A model generated the notes under the pieces. That model was not told where the DNA came from. It saw only the letters and a list, made by a program, of their open reading frames with translations, and made no database searches. Positions 51,100-54,256 of a DNA stretch of 64,000 bases are shown here, in pieces. The position numbers were made by a program, and so were the translations under genes. How positions within the stretch are numbered: the stretch's first letter is position 1; each line of letters begins with the position of its first letter. Origin of the DNA: Paramagnetospirillum marisnigri (lineage in GTDB: Bacteria; Pseudomonadota; Alphaproteobacteria; Rhodospirillales; Magnetospirillaceae); contig NZ_LWQT01000088.1 in the NCBI RefSeq assembly GCF_001650715.1, forward strand, positions 124,001-188,000. The letters are read 5' to 3'.

Positions 51100-51114
51100 C
51101 ATTTCGCGAAATGT
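51099..51114. repeat. Perfect 16-bp palindrome after the helicase gene
   Basis: ACATTTCGCGAAATGT begins on the last base of the helicase stop codon. It is a perfect palindrome with a CGCG centre. It does not match parS or a Fur/Zur box. The remaining 235 bp up to the coiled-coil gene show no other gene; a G-run is seen near 51180-51198. Confidence 0.5.
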
Positions 51115-51349
51115 AGCAACGGGATCAGTGTTTGATTTTCGCGGATGAAAAAGGCATCCTGCGAGGCGCTATCCAAGGTCCGGGGGGGGCGGGGGAGCAG
51201 TTTCCGCCCATGTCTTGGAACACCATCCGGTGATAGCCGGTGTCCTGTCCGCGTGTGCGTCGCGTTGGCGGGGCGAGGGTTCATCCGTTGTCGTCCGACA
51301 GGTTGCGGGCGGTGGCGAGCCAGCAATTCCAGACGTTCAAGGTTGACTC

Positions 51350-54256
51350 ATGGGTGACACGACGATGACCAGAGGCGAGACCGAGGCTGAGGATCCGGGG
51401 GCGAAGCCCGCTCCGGTGGTCGATACCCCGGAGAGGGACCCCGTGTCCGCCCCGCCTCTGCCGGTTCTGCGGTCTGAGCCCCTGGTCCCGTCCGCGCCGC
51501 CTTCGGGGGGAGGTGGAGGACGTCTCGGCCAGATCGTCGCCGTGGTCCTGTCGCTGGCCTGGATCGGCTTTTGCGGCAGCTACGTCAATTCGTCGCTGGG
51601 CTGGAGCAACCTGATCTTCATGCAGCCCCAGGAAGTGGGAGGGCTGGCCGGCGCCGCCTTCGTGCCCCTGGCCTTCCTCTGGCTGGTGATCGCCTATCTC
51701 GACCGCGCCCGCGAGCTGCGGGCGGTCTCGTCCGATATCCGTCTTCAGTTGTCCCGCCTGACCTATCCGGCCGAAGGCTCCGAGCACCGGGTCGCCGCCA
51801 TCGCCGAGTCGCTTCGCTCGCAGGCCCAGCATCTGCTGCAGGCCTCGGCCGAGGCCTCGGGCAAGGGCGAGGCCATCCGTGACATGCTGGCCGCCCAGGT
51901 GGAAGCCATGACCACGGTGGTGGGGCGCGTCAACGGCGAGGCCCAGGCCGCCGTCGAGGCGCTGCGCCAGGAAGTGGACAGCCTGACCAAGGCCGCCGAT
52001 ACCGCCACCGCCCGGGCGCGCGAGATGGAGCATCTGCTGCGGGTCCAGACCCAGGATCTCAACACCGTCACCGAGACCTCGGCCACCCGTATCCGTGATT
52101 TCGGCGATTTGCTGCGCGGCCAGTTCGAGACCATCGAGGCCACCAGCGCCCGTGCCGCTGCCCGCGCCGATACCGTGGTCGAACAGGTGCGCGGCCAGAC
52201 CGAGGCCCTTGACCGCACGTCCCAGAACGCGGTGGTGCGTGCCGAGCAGGTGGTTTCCATGTTCGAGCGCCAGTCCGCCAGTCTGGGCAGCTCGGCCGAG
52301 CAGGCCACCAACCGCACCGAAGTGGTGGCTACCGCGCTCGCCGAACGGGTCGATGCGCTGGAAACTCTGTTCACCCGCCAGAATACCGATCTCGATCTTG
52401 CCGCCGAACGGCTGGCGGAACAGACCAGTCGCATCTCCGCCTCGCTGCAGCAGCAGGCCACCGGCCTCGACCAGATCACCGAACGCGTGCTGTCGCGCGT
52501 CAAGATCGTCGAGGAAGCGCTGGGCGTGCAGTCGCGCGAGCTGGTCTCGGCTTCGGATCAGGCCATGGGCCGTTTCCGCGAGATCGAGGAAGTGCTGGCG
52601 CGCCATACCGACAACCTGCGCACTTCCGCCGATGAGGCCTCGACCCAGATGGGCGCGGTGGGCGAGGTCTTCGTCCAGCGCCGCGACGAGGTGGACGCCG
52701 CCGTGGAACGGGCCATCGGCCGCATCCGCGAAGTGGGCGAGGGCTTCCAGGCCCAGACCCGCGCCCTGTCCGCCGCCTCGGACCAGATGAGCGTGCGCGG
52801 CCGCGAAGTGGCCGAGACCCTGCGTCTGCATATCGAGGACCTCAACAAGGGCGCCGAACGGGCCGCCGCCCAGGCCGAGGCCATCCGCCAGTCGCTGCGG
52901 AAGCAGGCCGACGAACTGGCCGACGCCGCCAATGTGGTCTCGACCCAGTCCAAGCTGTCGGAAGCCTCGCTGAACCAGCAGTCGCGTCATCTCATCGCCA
53001 CCTCGGATCAGGTGATGGGCCGCGTCAAGGGCATCGCCGACACGCTGCGCCAGAACACCAACGACCTGATCGCCATGTCGTCCCGCGTCGGCGTCGAACT
53101 GGAAGCGGTGGGCGAGGCGTTGCGCCAGCGCACCACCGATGTGGGCACCGCCGCCGCCCGCGCCCAGGCCGAGACCACCAGCGTCGCCGAGGTGCTGGAA
53201 AAGCGGTCCGAGCAGTTGGGCCATGTGGCCGAGCAGTTGGGATCGCGCGTGCGCGCCGCCACCGAAGTGCTGCGCAAGCAGACCGAGCAGGTGGTCATTT
53301 CCGCCGACCAGGCCGAGGCCTCGGTGGGCGGCGTCGGCGAAAGCCTGCGGGTGCAGTCCCAGTCCCTGGCCCGGGTGGCCGACGATTCCACCGATGTGCT
53401 CAAGGCCTTCGGCGCCGCCATCCAGCAGAACGCGGTGGAACTGGGCGAGGCCGCCCAACAGGTGTTCGCCCAGTCCCAGACGGCTGGCGATGCCTTGCGC
53501 ACCATCAGCCGCGATTTCGAGGAAGCCTCCAACAAGACCGCCGCCCAGGTCACCGCCGCCGGCGATATGCTGCGCGCCGGTATCCGCGACCTCACCGCCT
53601 CGTCGGAACGCATCACCGCCCAGGTCCGGGCGGCGGGTGACGGATTGCGCCGTCATGCCTCGGACCTGCAGGAAGCCACCGAACGCACCAGCGCCAAGCT
53701 GGAAGCCGCCTTCGAGATGGTGCGCACCAAGTCCAACGATCTCGGCATTACCGGCGATCGTCTGGCCCAGCAGGCGGAAAGCTTCTCCAACAGCTTCGCG
53801 CGCCAGATCGACGAACTGGTCAATGCCTCCAAGCTTGCGGAACTGCGCACCGGCCAGATGGAAGAGAAGCGGGCCCAGGCCTCGGTGGAGCATTTCCTCC
53901 AGAACGCCGCCTTCATCGTCGAGAAGCTGCAGAGCCTGTCGGTGGATATCGGACGCATCTTCAACGCCAATATCGACGAGAAGGCCTGGCGCGATTTCCA
54001 TGCCGGCGACCAGAGCATCTTCGTGCGCAAGATTCTCAAGAATCTGGACAAGCACCAGATGTCGTCCATCAAGAACAAGTTCGAGGACGATGGCGAGTTC
54101 CGCGAATACGTCACCCGCTATCTGGCCGAGTTCGAGACCCTGCTGAGCCAGGCCCGCAACTCCGACCACATGGACGTCCTGACCGGAACCTTCACCTCGT
54201 CCGAGGTGGGCAAGCTTTATCTGGTGCTGGCCCGTTCGCTGGGCCGTCTGGAATAG
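51350..54256 (+). CDS. Membrane-anchored long coiled-coil rod protein with 25-residue repeats
   Basis: 968 residues. Residues 1-58 are Pro/Ala/Gly-rich and probably cytoplasmic; two membrane helices lie at about 60-80 and 97-116. Residues 149-834 are made of 27 units of exactly 25 residues plus one 11-residue insertion after the eighth unit. Each unit has hydrophobic residues at 3, 7, 14, 18, 21 and 25 and the common stretch E-x-L-R-x-Q-[TS] at positions 5-11. That is one hendecad plus two heptads, so a continuous, nearly straight coiled coil about 100 nm long is predicted. Residues 835-968 form a separate domain (VRKILKNLDKHQMSSIKNKF). The family is not recognised; the layout recalls polarity factors such as TipN. 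Confidence 0.85.
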   Translation: MGDTTMTRGETEAEDPGAKPAPVVDTPERDPVSAPPLPVLRSEPLVPSAPPSGGGGGRLGQIVAVVLSLAWIGFCGSYVNSSLGWSNLIFMQPQEVGGLAGAAFVPLAFLWLVIAYLDRARELRAVSSDIRLQLSRLTYPAEGSEHRVAAIAESLRSQAQHLLQASAEASGKGEAIRDMLAAQVEAMTTVVGRVNGEAQAAVEALRQEVDSLTKAADTATARAREMEHLLRVQTQDLNTVTETSATRIRDFGDLLRGQFETIEATSARAAARADTVVEQVRGQTEALDRTSQNAVVRAEQVVSMFERQSASLGSSAEQATNRTEVVATALAERVDALETLFTRQNTDLDLAAERLAEQTSRISASLQQQATGLDQITERVLSRVKIVEEALGVQSRELVSASDQAMGRFREIEEVLARHTDNLRTSADEASTQMGAVGEVFVQRRDEVDAAVERAIGRIREVGEGFQAQTRALSAASDQMSVRGREVAETLRLHIEDLNKGAERAAAQAEAIRQSLRKQADELADAANVVSTQSKLSEASLNQQSRHLIATSDQVMGRVKGIADTLRQNTNDLIAMSSRVGVELEAVGEALRQRTTDVGTAAARAQAETTSVAEVLEKRSEQLGHVAEQLGSRVRAATEVLRKQTEQVVISADQAEASVGGVGESLRVQSQSLARVADDSTDVLKAFGAAIQQNAVELGEAAQQVFAQSQTAGDALRTISRDFEEASNKTAAQVTAAGDMLRAGIRDLTASSERITAQVRAAGDGLRRHASDLQEATERTSAKLEAAFEMVRTKSNDLGITGDRLAQQAESFSNSFARQIDELVNASKLAELRTGQMEEKRAQASVEHFLQNAAFIVEKLQSLSVDIGRIFNANIDEKAWRDFHAGDQSIFVRKILKNLDKHQMSSIKNKFEDDGEFREYVTRYLAEFETLLSQARNSDHMDVLTGTFTSSEVGKLYLVLARSLGRLE
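51794..53851 (+). repeat. Array of 27 coding repeats of 75 bp plus one 33-bp unit
   Basis: The 25-residue repeat of the rod protein corresponds to 75-bp units from 51794 to 53851. The count closes exactly: 148 + 27x25 + 11 + 134 = 968 residues. The single 11-residue unit lies after unit 8 (DLAAERLAEQT, about residues 349-359) and equals one hendecad, so the coil register is kept. At DNA level the units are well diverged, meaning an old expansion held by selection on the protein. Confidence 0.85.

What the first reader, a model, noticed from the sequence alone, without database searches (positions are those of the whole stretch)
51350..54256. Giant membrane-anchored rod built from 27 exact 25-residue repeats
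Reading the protein in blocks of 25 from residue 149 keeps the same pattern (E-x-L-R-x-Q-[TS] at positions 5-11; hydrophobic at 3, 7, 14, 18, 21, 25) for 27 blocks, with one extra 11-residue block after the eighth. The sum closes exactly on 968 residues. Period 25 = 11+7+7 means 25 residues over 7 turns (3.57 per turn), a nearly unsupercoiled coiled coil; the lone insertion is one hendecad, so the register survives. At 1.5 angstrom per residue the rod is about 100 nm. Two membrane helices precede it and a 134-residue domain follows. This is a molecular ruler or tether design, possibly polar or cytoskeletal, and I know no named family for it.
Basis: partly seen in the sequence, partly recalled or inferred. 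Interest (0 to 1): 0.82.

Follow-up and report, generated by a model that had tools for sequence, protein, structure and literature searches.

The report
Magnetospirillum relative of polar-growth ring proteins
A long, membrane-anchored helical rod in a Magnetospirillum-type bacterium is related to proteins that mark growing or new cell ends in other alphaproteobacteria, and MamY, which lines up magnetosomes along the cell, looks like a short-rod relative of it.

Summary
The repeat is real: 968 residues with 27 blocks of 25, one 11-residue insert after block 8, hydrophobic period 3.57 and a 134-residue end domain. The end domain matches Sinorhizobium RgsE (2,089 aa, homolog of Agrobacterium GPR), 35% over 116 residues (E 1e-17); RgsE also has the TM hairpin. 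In ten genomes of the inferred Caulobacter genus the end-domain profile finds one ORF each; in one with MipZ identical to the PDB sequence it is 882 aa, the published TipN length. The domain is in 105 of 289 alphaproteobacterial genomes and no Pfam or NCBIfam model covers it. Best reading: a polar or shape landmark scaffold working like GPR/RgsE/TipN, with a 25-residue rod instead of the apolipoprotein-like one. The strict-ruler idea is unproven. New here: MamY carries both the hairpin (E 5.9e-9) and the end domain (E 1.2e-4); in this genome only these two proteins were found, and no relevant paper in the library joins these names.

The parts
51350..54256 (+). CDS, 968 aa, membrane-anchored rod protein related to GPR/RgsE/TipN
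51350..51517 (+). N-terminal tail, residues 1-56, Pro/Gly rich, poorly conserved (mean identity 0.24), predicted unstructured
51518..51703 (+). TM hairpin domain, residues 57-118: two helices around a short loop with the family motif (consensus GWxNLxxLLPHE; here GWSNLIFMQPQE)
51704..51793 (+). juxtamembrane segment, residues 119-148, with the conserved LTYP motif
51794..52393 (+). rod, blocks 1-8 of 25 residues (149-348)
52394..52426 (+). 11-residue insert (349-359)
52427..53851 (+). rod, blocks 9-27 (360-834)
52427..52576 (+). conserved rod segment, blocks 9-10 (identity 0.76 and 0.83; rod mean 0.61), possible docking site
52877..53101 (+). conserved rod segment, blocks 15-17 (identity 0.86, 0.81, 0.76), possible docking site
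53852..54253 (+). C-terminal domain (835-968): all-helical model, mean identity 0.77 against 0.61 in the rod, class-wide, no Pfam or NCBIfam model

Best explanation
The gene encodes a spatial landmark scaffold that works like GPR/RgsE and TipN and is related to them. SHOWN by sequence: a short N-terminal tail; a TM hairpin with a conserved loop (family consensus GWxNLxxLLPHE); a rod of 27 x 25 + 11 residues whose hydrophobic stripe is nearly straight (25 residues in 7 turns); a class-conserved C-terminal domain. PREDICTED: rod and end domain are helical (end domain at fair confidence, rod at low confidence). INFERRED: the hairpin sits in the inner membrane with both ends in the cytoplasm, as reported for RgsE; several chains associate through the stripe into a bundle up to about 100 nm long; the two strongly conserved rod segments and the C-terminal domain dock partners; clustering of the anchored bundles at a pole or growth zone positions envelope-building, division or chromosome-segregation machinery. 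The client in Magnetospirillum is unknown.
For: Window C-terminal domain against S. meliloti 'kinesin' UIJ93612.1: E 1e-17 in 7.3 Gb; 35% identity over 116 aa, ending within two residues of the C-terminus of each protein. That ORF is 6,270 nt = 2,089 aa, the published RgsE length (PMC7327166, passages), and it carries PF01442 (257.8 bits), as RgsE is reported to. A TM-hairpin profile built without RgsE finds RgsE residues 123-222 at E 6.4e-6. A C-terminal profile holding no member of the Caulobacter family finds one ORF in each of 10 genomes of the inferred Caulobacter genus (E 1.1e-11 to 5.2e-10; 10 of the 12 genomes that passed one search were searched). Two of these have MipZ 100% identical over 260 residues to PDB 2xj4; in one of them the ORF from its first ATG is 882 aa, in the other the matching start gives 884; TipN is given as 882 aa in PMC13170164 (passages). 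GPR is called similar to TipN in PMC8546619 (passages). RgsE homologs are reported in Rhodospirillales (PMC7327166). 88 of 99 relatives have a match. In two searches over 289 class genomes, 89 of 111 ORFs with the C-terminal domain also carry the hairpin (the hairpin profile was trained partly on these ORFs).
Against: I have no localisation or mutant data for this protein. The rod differs from RgsE: PF01442 is not matched, and the period is 25 (3.57) against 22 (3.655). The hairpin profile did not find the hairpin of the Caulobacter-genus ORFs, only that of a family relative (L178, E 1.2e-4). Krol et al. found no other Rgs homologs in Rhodospirillales and raise a different role there (PMC7327166). 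The Hpt gene beside rgsE and nine other long-rod genes was not found beside this one. The TipN assignment rests on ORF length and MipZ identity, not on a named record.
Confidence: 0.72

Rival explanations
1. It marks the inner-curvature (geodetic) axis of the helical cell rather than the poles, in the manner of MamY, and helps shape the spirillum or place cytoskeleton along that axis.
For: MamY in the same genome is the only other family member found, by hairpin (E 5.9e-9) and by C-terminal domain (E 1.2e-4). MamY directs magnetosomes to positively curved membrane in MSR-1 (PMC9512821, passages).
Against: GPR and RgsE are reported polar and TipN is a new-pole marker. Deleting mamY in M. magneticum AMB-1 left the chain in place (PMC9512821), so even MamY's role varies.
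Confidence: 0.2
2. A strict molecular ruler: the rod sets a fixed distance of about 100 nm between the membrane and a C-terminal client.
For: Full-length matches in the window's GTDB family all lie in open frames of 930-1,096 residues; one rod indel among 30 orthologs of similar length; unbroken periodicity.
Against: A same-genus pair elsewhere differs by 196 residues at 88% identity; rods in the ORFs collected run from 282 to 2,420 residues; conservation is patchy along the rod, as expected for docking sites and not for a mere spacer; the rod could lie along the membrane.
Confidence: 0.12
3. A lipid-surface protein: the amphipathic rod binds membrane like an apolipoprotein.
For: GPR is classed with PF01442 (PMC8262873, parts 1-2 of 6 read) and RgsE matches it.
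Against: The window protein has no PF01442 match; 25/7 periodicity gives a narrow near-straight stripe, typical of coiled coils (general knowledge).
Confidence: 0.05
4. It is the Magnetospirillum protein already published as CcfM, a curvature-inducing coiled-coil protein.
For: [quoted passage not shown] that it is membrane-anchored I recall.
Against: I recall CcfM as clearly smaller, unchecked.
Confidence: 0.05

Closest known systems
RgsE (Sinorhizobium meliloti) / GPR (Agrobacterium tumefaciens)
   Same: Two N-terminal TM helices, very long helical rod, homologous C-terminal domain (35% identity) and homologous hairpin (E 6.4e-6) for RgsE; published as cytoplasmic, membrane-anchored growth-pole proteins. 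GPR's own sequence was not compared.
   Different: 968 against 2,089 or 2,115 aa; 25-residue period, no PF01442 match; no neighbouring Hpt gene found; polar growth is not known to me in Magnetospirillum (recalled).
TipN (Caulobacter)
   Same: Similar length (882 aa), two TM windows, homologous though diverged C-terminal domain (E about 1e-10).
   Different: No clear 25-residue period in the Caulobacter-genus ORFs; hairpin not detected there by the profile; the ORF was identified by length and MipZ, not by name.
MamY (NCBIfam NF040997)
   Same: Same hairpin (E 5.9e-9 in the whole genome; hhalign 97.5%) and the same C-terminal domain (E 1.2e-4; hhalign 87%) in the same order (no negative control was run for hhalign).
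   Different: 434-residue open frame with a short linker instead of the rod; a magnetosome-chain protein; described as weakly similar to Centaurin BAR (PMC12004969, passages).
Rod-less paralogs, 318-420 residue open frames
   Same: Hairpin followed almost directly by the C-terminal domain.
   Different: No long rod; unnamed; function unknown.

Membership tests
GPR/RgsE | homologous C-terminal domain at the extreme C-terminus | tested here: met
   Against RgsE: tblastn E 1e-17; blastp 35% over 116 aa
GPR/RgsE | homologous N-terminal two-TM hairpin | tested here: met
   A5 profile (built without RgsE) finds RgsE 123-222, E 6.4e-6, and the window protein, 2.2e-35 (the window's hairpin is the first row of A5)
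GPR/RgsE | apolipoprotein A1/A4/E (PF01442) rod | tested here: not met
   No PF01442 match at E <= 1 nor at E <= 0.001; RgsE scores 257.8 bits. So it is not filed as a GPR/RgsE member in the strict sense, but as a relative with another rod type
GPR/RgsE | very long helical rod between hairpin and C-terminal domain | tested here: met
   686 residues, helical in a low-confidence model; shorter than RgsE
GPR/RgsE | localisation to the growing pole, ring | not testable with these tools
   needs microscopy
TipN | homologous C-terminal domain | tested here: met
   One ORF in each of 10 genomes searched of the inferred Caulobacter genus, E 1.1e-11 to 5.2e-10, profile without that family
TipN | homologous TM hairpin | tested here: inconclusive
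   not found in the Caulobacter-genus ORFs L174-L176; found in the family relative L178, E 1.2e-4
TipN | new-pole mark, links to ParA and PopZ | not testable with these tools
   needs cell biology; role taken from PMC10127582 (passages)
MamY (NF040997) | match to the MamY model over its cut-off | tested here: not met
   In G000 the only NF040997 match at E <= 0.001 is on C69 (704 bits); the window locus on C88 is not matched
PF01442 Apolipoprotein | curated cut-off | tested here: not met
CcfM | sequence identity with the MSR-1 record | not testable with these tools
   paper not held, sequence not available

The most novel reading that the evidence does not exclude
The window protein, GPR/RgsE, TipN and MamY descend from one alphaproteobacterial landmark module: a membrane hairpin and a C-terminal docking domain joined by a rod whose length changes in register-preserving units, from none (rod-less paralogs) and short (MamY) to over 2,400 residues. 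The hairpin reads membrane site or curvature, the end domain recruits clients, and magnetosome positioning by MamY is a retooled cell-polarity scaffold rather than a BAR-type protein.
Probability: 0.5. Interest if true: 0.75.

Novelty: new variant of a known kind. Interest (0 to 1): 0.55.

Why it matters
It gives scattered alphaproteobacterial landmark proteins (GPR/RgsE, TipN and, new here, MamY) a common two-domain signature that can be searched, although the Pfam and NCBIfam scans run here found no model for the end domain, and the Pfam scan none for the hairpin. It offers a testable origin for MamY, whose way of sensing curved membrane is called unclear (PMC12004969, passages), and a regular 25-residue rod on which length and function can be tested.

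Tried and rejected
Family hits of the whole protein. Pfam and NCBIfam gave only matches below their cut-offs (Tup_N, PspB, Rota_NSP4; a WxxxE effector domain, MCE) and these were taken as chance. PHROGs, which has no cut-off, gave phrog_9267 (unknown function, E 7.5e-5, residues 91-138, the second TM helix) and a tail tape-measure family (E 0.0029); neither was followed. No PDB sequence relative at E <= 1 for the whole protein; for the C-terminal profile ten sequences at E 0.056 or worse.

Other dead ends. Phage records and viral contigs: no relative of the C-terminal domain (107 stretches matched a pattern, none confirmed). My first guess that families f153 or f40 were Caulobacteraceae was dropped when only f93 had a MipZ match at E <= 1e-100 to the Caulobacter sequence (2 of 289 genomes). 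A simple CtrA-type pattern was not found in 51100-51352. The block matrix of the window does not fit the rods of L088, RgsE or the Caulobacter-type L175 (mean scores below zero), so their register jumps were not interpreted. One search kept the wrong domain in some rows; this was redone.
Full report
OBSERVATION. The ORF at 51350-54256 (+) encodes 968 residues. Blocks of 25 from residue 149 give 27 repeats, an 11-residue insert at 349-359 and a 134-residue end. Mean block identity is 0.214, against a highest value of 0.098 in 1000 within-block shuffles. The hydrophobic period is 3.57 with power 10.8, against a highest value of 2.0 in 300 shuffles. A phase decoder finds one jump, +11. The blocks are exact in length, not in sequence.

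WHERE IT IS. The window is on contig C88 of a 4.62 Mb genome in 131 contigs. The closest named relatives listed are Magnetospirillum sp. SS-4 and Paramagnetospirillum kuznetsovii (L180, L181: 98% in the end domain; the window's own record may be left out of that list). The genome carries MamY (704 bits, cut-off 600), so it is probably a magnetotactic type. Neighbours are ordinary: a chemoreceptor and a UvrD-type helicase upstream, a HIT protein and a GDSL match below its cut-off downstream.

FAMILY. With the whole protein as query, 88 of 99 relatives match. With the 134-residue end alone, 105 of 289 genomes drawn across the class match at E <= 0.001, in open frames from 148 to 2,752 residues. 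No Pfam or NCBIfam model covers the end: of 51 members scanned, three Pfam families were hit by one member each at E >= 0.0014, and in NCBIfam the only model hit by more than one member was MamY (2 of 51, best E 0.0059), which became a lead. Of 36 hairpins scanned against Pfam, 4 hit PspB weakly (best E 0.0014) and five other families were hit by one each.

LINK TO RgsE/GPR. The window end against plasmid-collection records matches 6 records, among them S. meliloti CP090106.1, gene annotated 'kinesin', E 1e-17; the gene is 2,089 aa, the published length of RgsE, which is 42% identical to GPR (PMC7327166, passages). Identity is 35% over 116 residues at both C-termini. The hairpin profile, built without RgsE, finds RgsE 123-222 at E 6.4e-6. 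GPR deletions of 221 or 332 C-terminal residues strongly blocked complementation (PMC8262873, parts 1-2 of 6 read), which fits a key role for the end. Krol et al. already reported distant RgsE homologs in Rhodospirillales and raised a different role there.

LINK TO TipN. The end-domain profile A1, which holds no sequence of that family, finds exactly one ORF in each of 10 genomes of that genus (10 of the 12 that passed one search were searched) and a match in 16 of all 22 genomes searched; four families of the same order gave 2 of 8. In G492 the ORF is 882 aa from its first ATG; in G537 the matching start gives 884. A published text gives TipN 882 aa (PMC13170164, passages). The hairpin profile does not reach the Caulobacter-genus ORFs but does reach a family relative (L178, E 1.2e-4). 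GPR's similarity to TipN is in print (PMC8546619, passages).

THE ROD. Of 136 distinct family ORFs with rods of at least 250 residues, the window's own included, the spectral peak is 3.55-3.59 in 122 and the strongest lag is 25, 50 or 75 in 116; 116 show at least two TM windows, 15 one and 5 none (their N-termini may be cut); in all 136 the end domain lies within 20 residues of the C-terminus. These ORFs were collected by similarity and lean to the window's order: 88 come from L001-L050 and L180-L259. RgsE and three f100 members have peaks at 3.655-3.665 and lags of 11, 22 or 44, the hendecad pattern; two of those three and RgsE were scanned and match PF01442. Six others lie at 3.62-3.635 and four Caulobacter-order ones at 3.595-3.60 with weak power. 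Rod length: in the window's GTDB family, matches that span the query lie in open frames of 930-1,096 residues, fragments apart. In 30 orthologs aligned to the window, 39-86% identical, the rod holds one indel, a 4-residue deletion at 227 in 7 sequences. These 30 were picked from 66 complete loci for lengths near the window's; 19 of the 66 have frames of 1,267 residues or more and were left out. L041 and L044, from one genus, are 88% identical and differ by one 196-residue gap, 196 being also their strongest internal period. Length is thus steady in the window's own group and changes between groups in large steps. Conservation along the rod peaks in blocks 9-10 and 15-17 (0.76-0.86, rod mean 0.61); the end domain has 0.77.

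MamY. The end-domain profile searched over the own genome at E <= 1 finds two ORFs: the window protein (2.6e-49) and MamY (1.2e-4); in four other same-genus genomes with MamY it is found at 1.3e-4 to 4.3e-4. The hairpin profile A5, built without MamY, finds in the own genome the window protein (2.2e-35) and MamY (5.9e-9); the next hit outside these two ORFs is 0.17. G003, without a MamY match, shows no second member in either search. Profile-profile comparison gives 97.5% for the hairpin and 87% for the end domain, in the same order along MamY (five nearly identical MamY sequences, no negative control). The E-values of the MamYs are not independent. Against a simple story: mamY deletion disturbs chain placement in MSR-1 but not in AMB-1 (PMC9512821, passages). 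Rod-less open frames of 318-420 residues with hairpin and end domain occur in G057, G119, G170, G250, G286 and G380. In the library no relevant paper holds MamY together with TipN, RgsE or 'growth pole ring' (10 papers with at least two of the terms, the two holding MamY being on X-ray tomography and GPCRs); the original MamY papers were not read.

CLASS-WIDE PICTURE. In two searches of 289 genomes the end domain gave 111 ORFs (E <= 0.001) and the hairpin 114 (E <= 0.0001); 89 ORFs have both, 344 to 2,491 residues long; 22 ORFs had only the end domain and 25 only the hairpin. Some single ones lie on cut contigs. The hairpin profile contains members from some of these genomes, so this is a description, not an independent test.

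MECHANISM. Topology is taken from RgsE, where cytoplasmic location and membrane anchoring were verified (PMC7327166, passages). Bundle formation, docking at conserved segments and clustering at a pole are inference. The single-chain model is helical with short breaks from residue 56 to 963, at low confidence, and does not test oligomers. A rod of 686 residues would be about 103 nm if straight and upright.

VERDICT. The protein is a variant of a known kind, with a different rod type. What deserves a second look is the shared module and its reach to MamY.

Noticed in passing
G000:C69:9273-10268 (L261), own genome, outside the window: MamY carries the same TM hairpin and C-terminal domain as the window protein.
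   Followed up: yes
L283-L287, L293: Rod-less relatives, 318-420 residue open frames: hairpin followed almost directly by the C-terminal domain.
   Followed up: partly
L088, L089, L090, L094, L095, L096, L098, L118, L121, L122: A small Hpt-type phosphotransfer gene (annotated so in L121 and L122, by similarity in the others) lies divergently upstream of the long-rod gene in these 10 loci, S. meliloti rgsE included; not found beside the window gene. It hints at a phosphorelay link.
   Followed up: partly
L041 and L044: Two same-genus rods, 88% identical, differ by exactly one 196-residue super-repeat (7 x 25 + 21).
   Followed up: yes
L121:3088-9357: The 2,089-aa RgsE is annotated 'kinesin' in a record labelled plasmid pSymB of 3.7 Mb, which by size and gene content may be the chromosome mislabelled.
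   Followed up: no
G000:C44:185395-186165 and G000:C98:4928-5713: The genome has two full-length MipZ-type matches (377 and 320 bits).
   Followed up: no
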